This document shows positions 1-10,128 of a stretch of DNA of 10,170 nucleotides, piece after piece; position 1 is the stretch's first letter, and each line of letters begins with the position of its first letter. A program made the position numbers and the translations under genes. Source of the DNA: Blastocladiella britannica (Eukaryota; Blastocladiomycota; Blastocladiomycetes; Blastocladiales; Blastocladiaceae); assembly GCA_025349905.2 (NCBI GenBank), contig MU625170.1, forward strand, positions 1 to 10,170. The letters are read 5' to 3'. A model generated the notes under the pieces. It ran no database searches, was not told the origin of the DNA, and saw nothing but the letters and a program-made list of their open reading frames with translations.

Positions 1-1083
1 TTTTAAGAAATGTACGTACTCGCTCTGGGTCGCACGCGCAGTACTCGCCAACGCCCCGTCCGCCTTATTGACCAGCACCAAGTCGCTGACCTCCACAATC
101 CCCTTCTTCATGCCTTGCAACTCGTCTCCTCCGGCCGGACTCACCAGCAACACCATCGCATCCACCATATCCGCAACCATGGTCTCCGACTGGCCCACGC
201 CCACGGTTTCCACCAGCACCACCTCGTAGCCGTTGGCCTCGCACAGCAAGATCGCGTCTACGGTATTGCGGGCAACGCCGCCCAGGGTACCGCGGGCAGG
301 ACTCGGGCGAACGTACGCGTCGTCGTGCCGCGACAGCTCGGGCATGCGCGTCTTGTCGCCCAGGATCGACCCGCCGGTACGTGTTGACGACGGGTCCACG
401 GCTAGTACGGCGACGCGCAGGCCGCGAGAGACCAAGTACATGCCAAAAGTCTCGATGAACGTCGACTTGCCGACGCCGGGACTGCCGGACAGACCCAATC
501 GTAAAGTCGTGGGTAACTTGCGTAGAGGGGGCGGGACCTGCGACGGGTCAGTGGGCGAAAACGTGGCCGGGGCCATTTCGAGGGTCGGACGGTGCTGTGT
601 GTCGCGGACCATAAGGTCTTGCACCGTGTACCGATCGAGCTGGCCTTTCTTTGTGGGCGCCACTGTGGTACGCAGCCGCGGCGCGATCGTGTTGGACGGG
701 ATACGGGTCGAGGTCGGCACAAACGAGGGATCGGAGCCGCCTCCCGTGTCGCGCATGTGGGCCAAGACCAGCGATAGCAAAGCATTGGCGTCCGGCTTGT
801 GCCGCGGTGCCGTCGATTCCACTAGGTACAATATATTTTGGTTAGTACTTGATTGACGCGCGTTCCATTGAGGTGTATACCAACCGAGAGTAATGGCCTT
901 GGCGAGCGCAAGCCGATCCTTGTGGAGGAGCCGCGTGTACAGGTCCATGACGTACGGCGACGGCTGTGTGGCCGCTGCGGTAGTGGACGAAGAGGACCGG
1001 CCCAATTTCAGCGACCATGTGGAGACCGGCGTACTCAAGGGCACCACACGACGAGCGGCGAGGGTGCGAGCATAACAATACAT
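1..1083 (-). CDS. MMAA: MeaB/ArgK/MMAA-family GTPase, partial (3' end beyond left edge)
   Basis: Putative mitochondrial G-protein chaperone of adenosylcobalamin-dependent methylmalonyl-CoA mutase (loading and protection of the B12 cofactor; propionate catabolism). Exon 1 is 1083-885 and exon 2 is 821-1 (still open at the edge), giving 340 residues so far; human MMAA has about 418, so the C-terminal dimerisation part is missing. Visible motifs: Walker [10 protein letters not shown] (about 179-187), then VLAVDPSS and [27 protein letters not shown], the switch region ETVGVGQSE (about 271), [12 protein letters not shown], and the G4 motif NKADG (about 318). The N-terminus ([14 protein letters not shown]...) is rich in Arg, Ser and Thr with no acidic residues, which suggests a mitochondrial presequence. 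The ATG at 1083 is the first in frame and has A at -3. About 70 residues (roughly 94-166) between the N-terminal helices and the G-domain look like an insertion. The family assignment is firm; the mitochondrial location is inferred. The gene starts 83 bp downstream of the threonyl-tRNA synthetase stop on the same strand. Confidence 0.93.
822..884 (-). other. Intron 1 of the MMAA-like gene (63 bp)
   Basis: On the minus strand it starts GTTGGT, carries a perfect TACTAAC branch site, and ends TGTACCTAG. Removing it joins ...AKAITL to VEST..., restoring the conserved ITL(V/I)ES stretch of MeaB/MMAA proteins. The junction is in phase 1 (G|TG). The intron is a multiple of three and has no in-frame stop, so retention would add 21 residues rather than truncate. 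A second GT (GTATAC) lies 4 nt further in, but its use would break the frame. Confidence 0.88.
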
Positions 1084-1166: not shown

Positions 1167-3456
1167 TTAAGCGGACAGAGCATTGGACAGGCTCTTCGAG
1201 TCCTTGAGCGTCGTAAACTTGGTGAGCAAGTCCTCGACCGAGATCATCTGGCCCTTGGCCTTGGCGCCGGCGTCGTCGCGGTTGCGCACATTGACCGACT
1301 TGGCGGACTCCTCCTCCCCGCCCACAATCAAGACAAAGTTCCACTGGGCGATCTCGGCATTGCGCACCTTCTTGTTGAGCGTGAACTCGGACACGTCGGC
1401 CTCGACGTAAAACCCAGCGTCCCAGAACGTCTTGGCGACTTGCTTGGCGTACTCGTTGTACACGGGCGCGACCGGCACCACCAGCGCCTGGCGCGGCGAC
1501 AGCCAGAACGGCCATTTCCCTCCAAACGACTCGGTGATGATGGCAATGAACCGTTCGACGGAACCGAGAATCGCACGGTGAATGATCACGGGACGCTGGT
1601 ACTCCTTGCCCTCGCCGGTCTCGGAGGTACGGAACGTCAGGTCGAACCGCTCGGGCAGCTGGAAGTCGAGCTGGATCGTCGCGCACTGGTGCGACCGCCG
1701 CAGCGCGTCCTTGATGGTGATGTCGATCTTGGGTCCGTAGAACGCGCCGTCGCCGGGACTCAGCGACCAGTCGTACCCCGACGCGTTGAGGGCCGCCTCC
1801 AGCTTGGCCTCGGCCGCATTCCACACCTCAATCTCGCCCAGGTAGTTTTCGGGCCGCGTCGACAGTTTGAGCGTGAACGTGAACCCAAAGATGCCGTAAA
1901 TCTCCTGCAGGAACTCGAGGCAGCTGACCATTTCGGCCTCGATCTGCTCCGGCATGCAAAAGATGTGCGCGTCGTCTTGCTGGAACCGGCGCACGCGGGT
2001 CAGGCCCGTGAGCGCGCCCGAGAACTCGTTGCGGTGAATTACGCCAAAGTCCGCCAGCCGCAGGGGGAGCTCGTTGTACGACCGCGTCTTGTGGCCAAAC
2101 ATGACGCAGTGGCCGGGGCAGTTCATGGGCTTGAGCGCAAACTTCTCCTTCTCGACCTCGAACGAAAACATGTTCTCGGCATACTTTTGCCAGTGGCCCG
2201 ACGTCTCCCACAGCTTGGTGTTGTACATGTTGGGCGTCACCACCTCCTGGAACCCGCGCTTGCGGTACTCGGCCCGCTGCAGCTCCACCAGCGCATTGTA
2301 AATGCGCGTCCCGTGCGGCAAAAAGAAGCACGACCCGGGGGACATGTCGCTGAAAAAGTACAGCTCTTGCTCGCGGCCAATCTTGCGGTGGTCGCGCTTG
2401 GACGCCTCCTCCAGAAACTTCTTGTGCTCCGTCAGCTGCTTCTTGTCCGGGAACGACACGCCGTAAATGCGCTGCAGCGAGTCGTTCTTGGCGTCGCCCA
2501 AAAAGTAGCTGGCCGAGTTCTTCATCACCGCAAACGCCTTGACGCGGGCGGTGTTGGGCACGTGCGGGCCACGGCACAGGTCAATCAGCGGGCCACAGCG
2601 GTAGACCGTGGTCGAGGTACCGTCGGCGATCTTGTCCTGGATAATGTGCTGCTTGTACGGGTTGTGCTTGAACATCTTGAGCAGGTTTTCTTTCGAAATC
2701 ACCAGCCGCTCGAACGGCTGCTTGTCGCCCGCAATCATGGTCGCCAGCTTCTCGAGGGCAGGGTAGTCGGTCTGGGTGACGGGGCGGCCGGAGGGAATCG
2801 CCATCTCGTAGTAGAACCCGTCCTCGACCGGCGGGCCAATGCACAGGTGGCACCCGTAGTGACGCTCGCACGCCTCGCCCAAAATGTGCGCCGACGAGTG
2901 CCAGAAGACCGCGCGCGCCTCGTCGTTCTCGAAATCAAGCAGCTCGAGCTTGCACGACGACTCCAGCGGCCGCTCCAGGTCCCACAGCGCGCCATCGACC
3001 TTGGCAATCACCACGCGGTCGCCCAGCGACTTGGCAATCGACCGGGCAATCTCCATGGGCGTGGTCTCCCAGGACGTGCCGGCACGTTCAGACCCGTTGG
3101 GCAGCGTGATCGTGATGGGCTCGCGTTCCTTGACTGTAATATTTTTGTTTATGTTATTTTTTGGTTTGGTTTGTTGTCGATAAAAATTGGTTGACGTACG
3201 CTTCAGCTCGGCGTCGTGGGCAGCCTTGAGCTCCTCGAACATGGCAATGCGGTGCTGGACGTACTCGGGCTCGGGCGCGAACTTTGTATTGCTGAATTTA
3301 GTACATGACGCCAAGACGCGTAAAAGAGAAAAATACCTCAAGCGGGTGAGCACCCTCGGCAGCGGCAGCGGCAGCGGCACCCTTACCGGCCTTGGCAGCC
3401 TTGGGAGCCTTGGGCGTTTTGGCCGCGGTGGCGGGGCGTTGGTTTTCGGCCGACAT
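1167..3456 (-). CDS. THS1: Threonyl-tRNA synthetase, cytosolic type (EC 6.1.1.3)
   Basis: Charges tRNA-Thr with threonine for cytosolic translation. Exons: 3456-3337, 3281-3200 and 3133-1167, giving 722 residues (yeast Ths1 is similar at about 734). Order of parts: a Lys/Ala-rich N-terminus (about 1-35), HPLE...PEYVQHR as in eukaryotic cytosolic enzymes, a TGS domain starting ITITLPNG (about 75-135), and an SAD editing domain with HSSAH (146-150) and the C254...H258 pair. The class II core follows, with motif 2 [17 protein letters not shown] and motif 3 around [11 protein letters not shown], then the C-terminal anticodon-binding domain. The zinc and threonine ligands expected from the bacterial enzyme (Cys, His, His) are visible as C406 in MNCPGHC, H457 in DDAHIF and H586 in IIHRAILGS. 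The ATG at 3456 has A at -3 and opens a frame that reaches the conserved N-terminus only after splicing. All key residues are present. It is co-directional with the downstream MMAA-like gene. Confidence 0.97.
3134..3199 (-). other. Intron 2 of threonyl-tRNA synthetase (66 bp)
   Basis: Begins GTACGT and ends ATATTACAG; A-rich throughout, unlike the flanking GC-rich exons. Splicing gives ...[16 protein letters not shown]..., as expected for eukaryotic enzymes. The length is a multiple of three and there is no in-frame stop, so retention would insert 22 residues just before the TGS domain. The branch site is unclear; AATAAC is the nearest candidate. Confidence 0.88.
3282..3336 (-). other. Intron 1 of threonyl-tRNA synthetase (55 bp)
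   Basis: Begins GTATTT, carries TACTAAA as a branch-site match, and ends ATACAAAG. Splicing joins HPLE to [11 protein letters not shown], restoring the usual start of cytosolic threonyl-tRNA synthetases. An earlier AG (TTCAG) lies 10 nt upstream and would shift the frame, so the AAAG acceptor is preferred. Confidence 0.88.
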
Positions 3457-4154
3457 GTTTATTTTCCGTTGAAATTCGTTGAAAGAGTTGATTATTCTAC
3501 AACAACGACGCGACGACAGAACGTGCGTGTTATAGGGCGAGGACCACGCGAATCGAGCGGGCGAGGGGCGTTACGAGTCTTCTTGAGTCTTGAGTGGCGA
3601 CGCCGGGGCGACTCTCGAGCAATCACGCGGATGACCATTTATTGACATTCAACAGTTTCCCAAAAATTCATTTGACAGTTATGGAATTTCAACCCAAGGA
3701 TCTACCGCGGCTCGACAGCATTCGCGGATCCACGGTGCTCTCGTCTAGCGCAAGCCCAAGTATGCACTCCGCACATTACCTTCTTGAATATGAAATACGA
3801 CCATGTGTCCGTGCCACTGTGACTTGCTCGAATCCCCCGTGCTGTCTGGCATACCCCGGCACGTAGATCCGTCAGCGGAGTCACTCCGGTTTCACTGGAA
3901 CTGGTGTCAATTTCACTCGCACCAGTCCTGGCCGGTCCGAAATTATCCGTACCAACTAAGAATGACTTGCGACCGTAACCACAAGGGCAATGGCAACGGC
4001 AAGGGCAGCTTGCGGTTGTGACAATGGCGTATCTGACGCATGTCATCGTCGGCACTGGAGAGCATCTCCAGCGACGACGAAGGCGGGCTGACAGCAGAGC
4101 GCTGTGGGCTCACGAAAAAGCTCGCATGGCTGATCCTGAGATAGCTATAGCGAA
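3457..4154. other. Non-coding region upstream of threonyl-tRNA synthetase
   Basis: About 700 bp in which I recognise no gene. Short open frames on both strands (for example plus 3681-3866 and minus 3702-4055) have no known motif and no supporting context. Base composition is more balanced than in the flanking exons. The stretch nearest 3456 should hold the synthetase promoter and 5' UTR. Confidence 0.55.
3575..3614. promoter_or_regulatory. Cluster of GAGTC/GACTC elements upstream of threonyl-tRNA synthetase
   Basis: GAGTC occurs at 3575-3579 and 3585-3589 (10 bp apart), a GAGTG variant at 3592-3596, and GACTC at 3610-3614. The cluster lies about 120-160 bp upstream of the synthetase ATG. Fungal Gcn4/CPC1 sites have the core TGACTCA, and aminoacyl-tRNA synthetase genes are often under this control. 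Here the best copy reads AGACTCA on the minus strand, one mismatch from the consensus. This is a weak, suggestive call. Confidence 0.25.
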
Positions 4155-5254: not shown

Positions 5255-8200
5255 ATGGGCCTGCCTGCTGCAACCGCACCACCACCACCGCCCGCGCAGC
5301 ACCGGCGCCAGCCTCGCCCGACTTCCGGCACCGCACCACCGGCCGCTGCATTCACGGCCGTATCTCCGTCCTCTGCTGCCGGAAGCGGAACGTCGTCTTC
5401 GGCCGCCATCACTGATGCCGCAACTGTTCCTCTGCTGACCAGCACCACTCTGCGGCACATCTTGTCGGGGGGCGATGCAGCTGCCCACGGCACCGGCGGT
5501 CCCAGGACCACCAGCGCCGGCCACGCATATGCGCCGATTGCGCTGTCCGACATTTCCGTGGCCCCCCCTCCCACCACCTCCCAGATTGCTCTCGCGGCGC
5601 TGTTAGCCCCGTCGTCGTCCGAATCCACGGTGGGCGACCCACGGCACGACTCGAGTGACGTGTTTCATGGCGGCGGTGGCCTGAGCAAACCTCTCCTGAT
5701 GTCGTCGACCACCACTCTTCCCAAGAAAGGAGGGGGTGGCGACAAGGATCTGCTGGCCGACCCCGGAATTCTAAATGACGGGAGCACGCCGTCGTACGCA
5801 CGGTCCACCGCCTCGATTGCCCCTTCCCGCGGGCTGCCGGTCCCACCACCACCAAAGAACAAGATGCTGCGTGTTCCGGGCCTGCGCTGGAACTGGCGCG
5901 ATCGGGCCGCGGCGGCCGTGCAGAGGCGGTGGCCGTTCGTGTGGCTGCTCCCGGTCCTGCTCCTGGTCGCCACCGCCGTGGTCTCGTACGAGGTGTGGCA
6001 GGTCATGTCGGCCAGTCAGCTGGCGGCGATCCAGCGCGGAAACGAGTTCCGGTCGTCGCAGCTGGCCGATCGCATCATCTTTGAGCTGCGCGCGCGGCTC
6101 ATGGCACCGGGGAATACCGTGCGCGGGTTTCTCGCCAACCAGCCGTCATTCAACCAGTGTATGTAATTTTTTTTTTTTGATCAGAATTCTTCATTTCATC
6201 CACTTAAAAAAAAATATATAGCAACCCTCGAATCATTCTGCTCGCTCACCAACTGGTCACCGTGGCTTCGTGTCACCCTCGCACCCCACATCAAGGATGT
6301 CGATCGCCCGCAATGGGAGTCCGACAACCGACGCACCATGAGCTTCGTTAACTCGTCGCTGGCGCCCGGCTCCCAATCCACCACCGTCTCCACCAACCAG
6401 GTGCAGTTGCCGCTGCACGTCAAGGACGACTACTGGCCAACGACCTACATCTACCCGTACACGCCCGAGCTCATTGGCGCCGACCTGTACACTCCGCCAC
6501 GAACCGAGGCGCTGGATGCGTCGCTCCAGTTGCCACTCAACGATTCCGACCACGGGTACTTTACCAACCCGTACGGCATGATCATCCCGCCGTCCAAATC
6601 AACGCATACGCCACCGGCCATTGGGTTCTCGTATTTCACGGCGCAGCTGGTGCAAAACAATACCTACTGGACCGTCAATACCCTCTTCAACGTACGGATC
6701 TTTTCATCCTTTATAATATCGCACTTACCGGGAGACGTTAAAAAAAAATAGCTCAACGCATTTATGAGCTCGCTCGTGTACAACTCGTCCCTCAACACCT
6801 GGTTCGTCATTGGCCTGTCCATCAACAACACGCTCGTGTTCCGCAATCCTGTCGAGGCCGGCAACACCCCGGTCTCTGAGGCCACCGCTTGGCAAAACTT
6901 TACTGTGGCCGGGCAGACATTCATGCTCGACTGCACGCCCAAGGCCAACAATAACGTGTTTATCACCGTGTGGCCCACCGTCACGCCGATTCTGGTGGCG
7001 CTGGCCGGCGTCTTTTTGACGGGTGGCGTGGTTCATATTTTGCGCCGGTTGCAGCGGTACTCTGAGGTATACCTTTCATTTGTATTGTGCTATTTTCAAT
7101 TAGCTCAATTTTTCTGTTGTAAAAAAAAAGACCGAACGCCTCTTGGGGTCGTGGAAAGGCTATTCCAAGGCAATTTTGGAGGCCACTCCCAATGCCATGT
7201 TGATCGTGGACTCTAGCGGCAAGATCTCGGTGCGCACCAATTATACTTTTCTTTCTATCTCAACTTTCAAAGAAGAATAAAAAAACTGATCAAAAATTTA
7301 AACAGGGCATTAATCGACCACTGGTGCACATGACGGGCCGATCCCCGGACTCGTTCGTGGAAGACCCGTCGCTCATGAGTCTCTTCCAGTTACCCGAGAC
7401 GACGTCGTTTGATCTGCTCAGCCAGACGTCGATTGGCGGCACGCCCCCGACCCACGAAACACTGACGCCGTCGACGCCGTTCCTGGCCCCGCCCACACCT
7501 TTACACCTGGAAGACGGCGAGACGCACCCGATCACATCGGCTATTTTCTTGGCCGAGGGCCGCCGCGAAGTGCAAGTGAAATGCGTGTCGGTCAACGAGT
7601 ACGGCGAACAAGTGCACTCGCTTGTCGACGCGATGCTGCAAGTGTCCCCACCGACGGGTCACCCGAACGTGCACCGTGTGCTGGTGATCACCGACCTGAC
7701 CGACTTGAAGCAGCGCGATAGGGCATTGGCGGCGGTCGCGCTCGAAAATCAGCGGCTGATTTCCGAGCAGCGGTCGATGCTCGCGTTTGTCGCGGCGTCC
7801 ATGGTCGCCCCTTTGCGCACGTTCTTTGCGGCCGCGTTCTCGCGCGACTCGGAGAACGGGATTCCGGAACTGCGCATTGCGACCGACCATATTCGCGGGC
7901 TGCTGGTCGCTACCTCCGAGCTCATGAACATTCCGCTGCCGCCCGGAAACATGGTGTTTCCCAAGCCGGGCGAGGAACAGGTCGCCCAGACCCCGATGCC
8001 GTCATCTCTGCACCACCACCATCAGCAACTAATGCGGCCGGACTTGACGCCATTGCTGGGCAGCGGCCTTTCGACCGGAGGAGCTCTGCTGGACTCGAGC
8101 TCCGCCGCGGCGGCAGCACGCCGCAGTCAGTCGCTGGCACGGTCGCGCGCCATCACGCCGTCGCCCGCACCTCCACCGAGCCCCGAAGCATTGACCCACT

Positions 8201-10128
8201 TTGCACTCGATGTGCGTCTGGGCGAGTGGCTCGGGACCAAACGGCCGGAACCCGACCCACCAAGATGCGTGCACTTGACCGCCGACGCGGTGCGCGTCCT
8301 GGACCGGTTGCTCGAGATTCTGCGGGAACTGCCGCCCGGGACGCTCATTCGGTGGTGGAGCGTGCGGCAGTCCAAGACGGCCGTGGCCACTTCGGCAGCG
8401 CCAAATGCGACTCCGACTCCACACACCGTCGCTGGAGCGGGAGGTGGGAATGGTGGAGAAATAGCGACCCCGCACACGCCGCCACACACGCCACTGCACG
8501 ATTCCACGACCCCAAACACCACCCCGGCAACGTACCTGTCGCTGCGCATCTGTGTGCCCTCGAGCGCGCAGACCGCGGTCCAGCAGCTCAAGCACTTGGT
8601 CGAGGACTTTGACTGGTCGCGACCCGCCCAGGGCGCGGCATTCTCGCTGCTGCTGCTCCAAGTGGCAGTTATCAAGCAGCTGCTGTCGCGCATTGGCGGA
8701 TTCTTTAGTGTGCTGCCCAACGACCGCGAGATCAGGGTAAGGATCCCGTGCCGGGCGTGTACGTGCACGCCGCGGAACTCGCCGCACCCGGCCGCTGGGG
8801 CGATTTCGGCGATTACGGCTACCGGTCCATCGGGTGTTGAGGCAGTGGGTGGTACAGTTAGTGTTCATGGCGACGCACCCGTTGCGGCCGCCGTTGCCTC
8901 GCATCAGTACCATGTATCGTCACTTCCACCAGTGGCAGAGTCGGTGGCGCCGCTGCCACTGCTATCGATCCCCGCCCGAAACAGTAATAACCCGTTCCCG
9001 TCGCCGGTGCACAGCGAAGCGACTCCGCCGCCCTTGCCACCGGGATCCACACCGCCGCCGCCGCCGCAGCAGCAGCGGGCCGATCTCGTGGGTGGAGGAG
9101 CCGCGAGTTCGGGGTCGGCGTTGCCGCCGCTCGGCCGGGGATTGTCGACGGCGGCTCTTAACACGCCGCCCGCATCGGCCACTGCTCCGACAACGACGGC
9201 GACGACCACGGCCGCGGCGGTGGCGGATCACGGGCCCAGCCGGACCTTGGTGGAGGCTGCGGCGGCGGCGGCCCTACTTCCACTCTCGCCACTATCGCGA
9301 TTATCATCCGCGCCATCGGCATCGTCTGTGGCCCCCGTCGCTGCTGCTGCTGCTGCCGCCGCCGTGGCCCAACCAAAAACGGCCGTACCCGCAACAACGA
9401 CCACTGTCACCACCAACGGGTCATCCGCGGCGCCGCGGCCGTCGTCGACCTCGTCTTCGGCGTTCCCGTTACACACCGAGGCGTCCCCCGCATGTGCGGT
9501 GCTCCCGTCCCTCCCGCCGCCGGCCGAACGCACGCGGCTCACGATCCTGGTGGTCGAAGATAATGTGCTCGTACAGCAAGTCACCAAGAGGTTCCTGATG
9601 ACCGCGGGGCACACGGTGCATATTGCGGATAACGGGCGCGATGCGCTCGAAAAGCTCGGGCTCGAGTTTAATCCGGAGGGGACCGCCGCCACGGACGCCG
9701 ACGGTGCTGCTGCTGGTGCTTCAGCGGGAGCCAACGGCGGTGAAGCGGGCCATGCACCGAACCCATCCCCGGCCTCACTCGCACCGCCTACCGGCGACCC
9801 GTCCTTCCCCCCCCCGCCCGTCGACGTGGTGGTCATGGACTTGCTCATGCCCATCTGCGACGGGTACGAGGCCACACGACAGATCCGCCGGCGGTGGAGC
9901 CCCGAACTGTTACCCGTAGTGGCCGTCACCGCCAACGCTGTCGCGGACGAGGCCGACCGGTGCTTTCAGGCAGGAATCACGGCGTTCCTTAACAAGCCGG
10001 TGCGGCGGAACCAGTTGGTCGCCGTCGTGCAGAACGCCGTCGGGTGGTGGCCGGCCGTCGAGGCCGCGAGGGCCGAGGCGGCAGCCGCGGCCGCAGCAGC
10101 AGCCGGCGCTGCTGCTAACAATGTGTAA
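5255..10128 (+). CDS. CHASE-PAS pseudo-histidine kinase with C-terminal receiver domain
   Basis: Membrane receptor of the hybrid histidine kinase type, 1536 residues in five exons: 5255-6158, 6222-6691, 6752-7066, 7131-7229, 7306-10128. The ATG at 5255 is the first after an in-frame TGA (5240-5242), with G at -3 and +4. Parts: Pro/Ala/Ser-rich cytosolic N-terminus (1-225); TM1 (about 226-248); an extracellular CHASE-like domain (about 255-534) with YIYPYTPELIGADLY and several N-glycosylation sequons (for example VNSS, NNTYW, YNSS, QNFT); TM2 (about 535-555); PAS starting ILEATPNAMLIVDSSGKI (from about 574); a DHp-like helix (about 745-800); an HATPase-like remnant (about 905-1080); a low-complexity linker (about 1085-1335); a receiver (about 1340-1510). 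The receiver is complete: E1347/D1348, phospho-acceptor D1441 in VVMDLLMP, T1471, K1493. The kinase core lacks the H-box His (MLAFVAASMVAPL instead) and has no N or G box; GAAFSLLLLQ stands where GTGLGLAI is usual. I infer no kinase activity. Confidence 0.9.
6159..6221 (+). other. Receptor gene intron 1 (63 bp)
   Basis: Begins GTATGT, T-rich at the start, with a 9-A run before ATATATAG. Phase 1; splicing joins FNQ to STLESFCSLTNW within the CHASE region. Retention would hit an in-frame TAA two codons later, giving a 303-residue protein with only TM1. Confidence 0.9.
6692..6751 (+). other. Receptor gene intron 2 (60 bp)
   Basis: Begins GTACGG and ends with nine A followed by TAG. Phase 0; splicing joins TVNTLFN to LNAFMSSLVYN. 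Read through, its terminal TAG is an in-frame stop. Confidence 0.88.
7067..7130 (+). other. Receptor gene intron 3 (64 bp)
   Basis: Begins GTATAC and ends GTTGT followed by nine A and G. Splicing moves the frame from RRLQRYSE, just after TM2, to TERLLGSWKGYSKAIL at the start of the PAS domain. Its length is not a multiple of three, so the frame change supports it. Confidence 0.88.
7230..7305 (+). other. Receptor gene intron 4 (76 bp)
   Basis: Begins GTGCGC, a weaker donor than the others, and ends TTTAAACAG, with CTGAT as a possible branch site. It is AT-rich and contains in-frame stops if retained. Splicing joins VDSSGKIS to GINRPLVHMTGRS inside the PAS domain, as expected for that fold. 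Confidence 0.85.
8761..9530 (+). repeat. Low-complexity coding linker (Ala/Pro/Ser/Thr-rich)
   Basis: Lies inside receptor exon 5, between the HATPase-like remnant and the receiver domain. It is dominated by GCN, CCN and ACN codon runs, including poly-Ala and Pro-Pro-Pro stretches. It is probably a disordered tether. A similar but shorter poly-Ala run (near 10075-10110) ends the protein after the receiver. Confidence 0.75.

What the first reader, a model, noticed from the sequence alone, without database searches (positions are those of the whole stretch)
7740..8760. Receptor kinase core without phospho-histidine or ATP-binding motifs
Between the PAS domain and the linker, the protein keeps the layout of DHp plus HATPase. 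The helix MLAFVAASMVAPLRTFF sits where FLANMSHEIRTPLN is usual; LTADAVRVLDRLLEILREL sits where the N-box region is expected; and GAAFSLLLLQVAVIKQLL followed by GG sits where GTGLGLAI...GG is expected. The H-box His is absent and no His lies nearby (none in about residues 728-780), and the N, G1 and G2 residues are gone. This looks like a pseudo-histidine kinase that keeps its fold but not its chemistry. It might act as a conformational relay or as a partner of an active kinase.
Basis: partly seen in the sequence, partly recalled or inferred. Interest (0 to 1): 0.8.

Follow-up and report, generated by a model that had tools for sequence, protein, structure and literature searches.

The report
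Fungal hormone-type receptor with dead kinase
A water fungus encodes a cell-surface receptor laid out like a plant cytokinin receptor whose kinase core has lost the residues for binding ATP and for carrying phosphate, so it must signal in some way other than ordinary histidine-kinase chemistry.

Summary
The window is one whole contig of Blastocladiella britannica (Blastocladiomycota). Its five-exon gene encodes a receptor with the layout TM-CHASE-TM-PAS-DHp-CA-linker-REC. The H-box histidine is Ala760, the Glu, Arg and Asn of HELRN are also replaced, and N, G1 and G2 boxes are gone. Only the receiver keeps its chemistry.

Relatives split the claim in two. Loss of the ATP site is shared: none of 9 family proteins with a CA-like region (window included) has N, G1 or G2 at the aligned place. 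Loss of the histidine is private: 10 of 10 relatives keep HELRNP. That helix fell to 0.22 mean identity here (relatives 0.78-0.84) while the flanking coil stayed ordinary. In one duplicated paralog pair the dead CA region is under purifying selection (dN/dS 0.19, as the receiver).

So this is a real pseudo-histidine kinase, inside a family of CHASE receptors that gave up ATP. The His-bearing members could still relay or remove phosphate, as ChpT, Spo0B and PhyT do; this one could not. My favoured mechanism, a ligand-gated receiver that accepts and drains phosphate, is inferred, not shown.

The parts
5255..10128 (+). Receptor gene, five exons (5255-6158, 6222-6691, 6752-7066, 7131-7229, 7306-10128), 1536 residues
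   Evidence: Splicing by hand from GT..AG sites and frame. The NCBI model covers exons 4-5 only, from Met in exon 4, and agrees with mine there. Exons 1-3 rest on homology of the sensor; the start codon is unproven.
5942..7066 (+). Two putative membrane helices enclosing a CHASE-type sensor (interrupted by two introns and followed by a third)
7143..7722 (+). PAS domain, with intron 7230-7305
   Evidence: Pfam PAS 23.1 bits, cut-off 22.6, on the spliced protein
7723..7953 (+). DHp two-helix region without phospho-histidine; Ala760 at 7795-7797 where relatives have His
   Evidence: Alignment with 10 relatives; modelled as two long helices
8263..8367 (+). Pseudo-CA, first part: helix at the N-box place, no Asn
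   Evidence: Paralog alignments; strand-helix-strand in the model
8548..8757 (+). Pseudo-CA, second part: strand, helix at the G2 place (LLLLQVAV), GG, two strands
   Evidence: HHalign to canonical kinases: probability 57, E 1.1e-4 for one comparison; 0 of 200 column shuffles reach the score
8758..9531 (+). Low-complexity linker of about 258 residues
   Evidence: position, composition; pLDDT mostly under 50
9532..10047 (+). Receiver with Glu1347, Asp1348, Asp1441, Thr1471 and Lys1493 in place

Best explanation
The protein is a membrane receptor of a Blastocladiomycota family (CHASE-PAS-DHp-pseudoCA, in some members with REC). Shown: no N, G1 or G2 box in 9 of 9 family proteins with a CA-like region; HELRN kept by 10 of 10 relatives and lost here; catalytic residues of the receiver intact here. 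Inferred by parsimony: the ATP site was lost before Catenaria and Blastocladiella separated. Inferred from established kinase chemistry: this protein cannot autophosphorylate, cannot pass phosphate through its DHp, and cannot act as a HisKA-type phosphatase, since His, Glu and Asn of HExxN are all replaced. Inferred mechanism: ligand binding to the CHASE domain changes the shape of a still folded DHp-pseudoCA dimer and so opens or closes access to its receiver. The receiver takes phosphate made by other kinases (through the HPt protein, or from the His of a family member in a mixed dimer) and loses it by hydrolysis, so the receptor works as a ligand-gated phosphate acceptor or sink.
For: No HisKA/HATPase_c match in the window protein; family-wide absence of HATPase_c matches at E up to 10 with canonical controls positive; motif tables; CHASE-type sensor; receiver residues in place; focal divergence of the H-box helix, 0.22 against 0.78-0.84, with ordinary flanks; purifying selection on the pseudo-CA of the C465/C508 pair, dN/dS 0.19; coding-like third-position GC in the DHp and CA stretches; six paralogs with the His, canonical kinases and a candidate HPt at 24.9 bits, cut-off 24.6 in the same genome.
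Against: There are no data on interaction, expression or biochemistry. The CA fold is predicted at modest confidence (mean pLDDT 50 and 62), and its profile signal sits mainly in one 24-column stretch: 8-column block shuffles reach 33.1 against 33.6. The second DHp helix of the C465/C508 pair is weakly constrained (dN/dS 0.83, 34 codons). Selection was not measured on the window gene itself. A focal burst of change could also be decay.
Confidence: 0.5

Rival explanations
1. Allosteric pseudokinase like Caulobacter DivL: the dead DHp-CA binds a phosphorylated receiver or an active kinase and acts by shape alone, and its own receiver chemistry is secondary.
For: DivL has Tyr for His, shows neither kinase nor phosphatase activity and binds DivK~P (PMC4211667, passages read). 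The pseudo-CA is conserved in the family.
Against: DivL-type function does not need an intact attached receiver, and this one is intact. No partner is known.
Confidence: 0.22
2. The gene is decaying: once the family no longer needed the His here, the H-box helix drifts and the gene is on its way to loss.
For: The H-box helix is the only stretch compared where the window is an outlier; its branch in the DHp-only tree is long, 2.34. Family members vary widely: C84 and C310 lack a CA region in the frames read, and C149 shows no receiver.
Against: Open frame through 1536 codons, coding-like GC3 in DHp and CA, receiver residues intact, and without the DHp the branch is ordinary (0.79 against 0.61 for Be3728).
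Confidence: 0.15
3. Ligand sink: the CHASE domain captures hormone-like ligands, and the cytoplasmic part only anchors or dimerises the protein.
For: The sensor resembles the others of the family.
Against: An intact receiver and a conserved core would not be needed.
Confidence: 0.08
4. Active kinase whose motifs are hidden by a frame error, an unseen intron or alternative splicing.
For: A GT at 8736 could be a splice donor.
Against: The frame is open and the deposited model is identical; motifs are absent from 9 of 9 CA-bearing family proteins; the H-box aligns in frame through the changed stretch.
Confidence: 0.02

Closest known systems
CHASE-domain hybrid histidine kinases (plant cytokinin receptors AHK4/CRE1; CHASE-HHKs of early diverging fungi)
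   Different: No ATP site in the family and no phospho-histidine in the window protein. I could not tell whether P0004 or P0005 are among CaHHK3-5.
ChpT, Spo0B and PhyT (phosphotransferases described as degenerated histidine kinases)
   Same: A DHp with His and a CA that no longer works as an ATPase describes the His-bearing relatives (PMC3433190 and PMC5898713, passages read).
   Different: Those are bacterial and lack this CHASE sensor and receiver. The window protein lacks the His as well.
DivL (Caulobacter pseudo-histidine kinase)
   Same: DHp without His, no kinase or phosphatase activity (PMC4211667, passages read)
   Different: DivL still binds an ATP analogue weakly (57 uM); the window protein has no N, G1 or G2 box and has its own receiver.
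Arabidopsis subfamily 2 ethylene receptors (ETR2, EIN4, ERS2)
   Same: Hormone receptors with missing kinase parts (stated in a passage of PMC5285503)
   Different: Different sensor, lineage and set of lost parts.

Membership tests
Active hybrid histidine kinase (HisKA + HATPase_c + REC) | Phospho-histidine in the H-box | tested here: not met
   Ala760 in place of His; 10 of 10 relatives have His
Active hybrid histidine kinase (HisKA + HATPase_c + REC) | N, G1 and G2 boxes of the ATP site | tested here: not met
   No HATPase_c match; patterns absent at the aligned places
Active hybrid histidine kinase (HisKA + HATPase_c + REC) | Receiver with acidic pair, Asp, Thr and Lys | tested here: met
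   Glu1347, Asp1348, Asp1441, Thr1471, Lys1493; Response_reg 74 bits
CHASE receptor | Extracellular CHASE domain | tested here: met
   By relatives: profile 179 bits, P0007 over the Pfam cut-off, P0006 model close to AHK4. Direct Pfam scan of the window sensor was negative.
CHASE receptor | Cytokinin binding | not testable with these tools
   No binding data
Pseudo-histidine kinase | DHp-CA fold kept with catalytic residues lost | tested here: inconclusive
   Residues lost. Fold: modest-confidence model, Foldseek matches to PAS-histidine kinases, HHalign probability 57; VIA rows did not cover this part.
Histidine phosphotransferase of the ChpT/Spo0B kind | Phospho-accepting His on a dimeric DHp-like bundle | tested here: not met
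   No His here; the His-bearing relatives would meet it
DivL-like allosteric pseudokinase | Binding of a phosphorylated receiver or a partner kinase | not testable with these tools
   No interaction data

The most novel reading that the evidence does not exclude
Blastocladiomycota hold a family of transmembrane, ligand-gated receptors that work without ATP: CHASE receptors turned into histidine phosphotransferases or phosphatases (HExxN kept, ATP site lost), with the window protein as a specialised subunit that has dropped the histidine and serves as the phosphate-accepting or silencing partner in mixed dimers.
Probability: 0.3. Interest if true: 0.75.

Novelty: new variant of a known kind. 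Interest (0 to 1): 0.52.

Why it matters
Hormone-type receptors of zoosporic fungi are inferred to be kinases from their architecture. Here a group of CHASE receptors in two genera appears to have given up ATP while keeping the histidine helix almost unchanged, and in the one pair that could be tested the dead domain is still selected for. This gives a natural series (His kept or lost, receiver kept or lost, CA kept or lost) for testing what a histidine-kinase fold does without kinase activity. It may also account for some of the Catenaria receiver proteins that a survey listed as unclassified response regulators (PMC8510515, passages read); that link is my inference and was not checked.

Tried and rejected
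Frame error or missed intron that would restore the motifs: rejected. His791 as a substitute phospho-acceptor: set aside, because it lies in the second DHp helix, where the B. emersonii and Catenaria relatives, which also have the real His, carry a His too.

Sequence-to-profile search for the CA domain: a profile from 21 canonical kinases scored three canonical controls at 179-187 bits, the DHp-bearing relatives at 8-25 bits through the DHp, and did not list the window protein at E up to 100; only P0007 showed a weak CA piece, E 0.24. Block shuffles of 8 columns reach nearly the real HHalign score, 33.1 against 33.6. The VIA rows of both models list sensor, PAS or receiver matches and no kinase core; that is absence from a list. 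A Pfam CHASE search of the assembly found nothing; the window's sensor is split by introns and divergent. A PDB sequence search with the P0007 sensor gave only chance hits.

Trees (unrooted) disagree on the nearest relative. Without the DHp (9 sequences) the window and B. emersonii 3728 are set against the rest with support 86 and 89. With PAS, DHp and CA together (11 sequences), or the DHp alone, 3728 groups with 3729 and Catenaria instead (74 and 75). Orthology to 3728 is therefore open.

Limits of the search for relatives: searches scored only the 7,993 and 7,995 candidates that shared most words; one search scored 668 candidates for one 79-residue stretch. Absence from Allomyces or other fungi is not shown.

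Rows dropped: of 28 canonical loci returned, 21 were kept because each held both an H-box and a G2 pattern, so these two motifs are present in that set by construction; in it N-box and G1 patterns were found in 18 and 13 of 21. HHalign used 8 of 9 family CA sequences after its own filter. C84 and C310 show no CA region in the frames read and are not in the CA counts. Of the ten relatives, the two Catenaria proteins are 99% alike over the searched stretch and C465/C508 are recent duplicates, so they are not independent. Two matches to the loose G2 pattern (GAGGG in the window, GTGEG in C167) lie in low-complexity loops.

Papers: my searches showed no report of this family; listings were cut and the library holds open-licence papers only.
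Full report
What the window is. The 10170-base window is a complete contig, G000:C615. Its protein is identical to BC828DRAFT_249673 of Blastocladiella britannica, on a contig of the same length. Contigs C149 and C167 of the same genome also match B. britannica records by protein and contig length. The gene runs from 5255 to 10128 on the plus strand in five exons and encodes 1536 residues. The deposited model starts in exon 4 and agrees from there on.

The observation. At the H-box the closest relatives read LAHELRNP and the window protein reads VAASMVAP: His to Ala760, Glu to Ser, Arg to Val, Asn to Ala, Pro kept. Pfam gives neither HisKA nor HATPase_c at E up to 10, only the receiver. A canonical kinase of the same genome, scanned from part of its gene, gives HATPase_c 79.7 bits and HisKA 27.3 bits.

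Two losses with different histories. Of 9 family proteins with a CA-like region, window included, none has an N-box, G1 or G2 pattern at the aligned place. In the alignment the Catenaria and B. emersonii proteins keep one of the three G2 glycines, which looks like an intermediate. Of 10 relatives, 10 keep HELRNP; the window alone lacks it. Mean identity over the 18-residue H-box helix is 0.22 for the window and 0.78-0.84 for the ten relatives. Over the 41 columns before it the window has 0.43 and the relatives 0.37-0.56. So the change is focal. Trees agree in part: without the DHp the window branch is 0.79 and that of B. emersonii 3728 is 0.61, while in the DHp-only tree the window branch is 2.34. 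Which relative is nearest is unsettled: support of 86-89 for pairing with 3728 without the DHp, but 74-75 for placing 3728 with 3729 and Catenaria when the DHp is used.

Is the CA-like region really a CA domain? The score on the compacted alignment, 33.6, is reached by 0 of 200 column shuffles (best 20.7) and not by the reversed alignment (14.8). Shuffles that keep 8-column blocks reach 33.1, so the signal is mainly the G2 helix and GG. AlphaFold models show an order of helices and strands compatible with DHp and CA, at mean pLDDT 62 (P0006) and 50 (window). Foldseek's best matches for both models are mostly PAS-histidine kinases and phytochromes. I take homology as likely and the exact fold as unproven.

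Is the dead domain used? In the duplicate pair C465/C508, dN/dS is 0.04 for the PAS start, 0.07 for the H-box region, 0.19 for the pseudo-CA, 0.19 for the receiver, 0.33 for the stretch before the CA, 0.37 for the linker and 0.45 for the PAS loop; the second DHp helix stands out at 0.83 over 34 codons. So in this pair the pseudo-CA is kept as carefully as the receiver. Selection on the window gene itself was not measured.

How it may work. Without an ATP site the family should not be able to make its own phospho-histidine (inference). Members with HExxN could move phosphate between receivers, as ChpT, Spo0B and PhyT do (PMC3433190, PMC5898713, passages read), or remove it, since the E/DxxT/N motif serves the phosphatase reaction of HisKA kinases and the isolated HK853 DHp domain shows that activity (PMC5727384, passages read). 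The window protein keeps neither option; what it keeps is the receiver. I therefore favour a ligand-gated phosphate acceptor or sink, perhaps in mixed dimers with His-bearing members. A DivL-like, purely allosteric role is the main rival (PMC4211667, passages read). The genome has canonical kinases and a candidate HPt that could feed such a system.

Known or new. CHASE hybrid kinases are reported from Catenaria and Allomyces (PMC5285503, passages read), and pseudo-histidine kinases are known from bacteria and plants. I found no report of fungal CHASE receptors without an ATP site (searches; listings only, apart from the papers named). A survey notes that Catenaria and Mortierella contribute 36% of unclassified fungal response regulators (PMC8510515, passages read). 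One Catenaria relative carries a UniRef name beginning 'Response regulator', so some of these may be such receptors; I did not check that. Verdict: a new variant of a known kind.

Noticed in passing
window 4-1083, minus strand: MeaB/MMAA-type GTPase gene (Pfam MeaB 252 bits), running off the left end of the window.
   Followed up: no
window 1170-3458, minus strand: Threonyl-tRNA synthetase gene: TGS, second additional domain, class II core and anticodon-binding domains.
   Followed up: no
window 9661-9819: Low-complexity insertion of about 50 residues inside the receiver, before the strand with the phospho-acceptor Asp; the other five receivers of the family listed lack it.
   Followed up: partly
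L051 (G000:C69:28500-33000): Another kinase-like gene with an H-box HEVRDNP and receiver matches but no HATPase_c match in the genome search: possibly a second, independent line of ATP-site loss.
   Followed up: partly
L046 (C84), L052 (C310), L045 (C149), L044 (C167): Family members that keep the His but, in the frames read, lack the receiver (C149, C167) or everything after the DHp (C84, C310).
   Followed up: partly
P0006 and P0007 (B. emersonii H9P43_003729 and 003728): Adjacent locus tags on one long contig: one His-bearing protein without and one with a receiver, a possible receptor pair.
   Followed up: no
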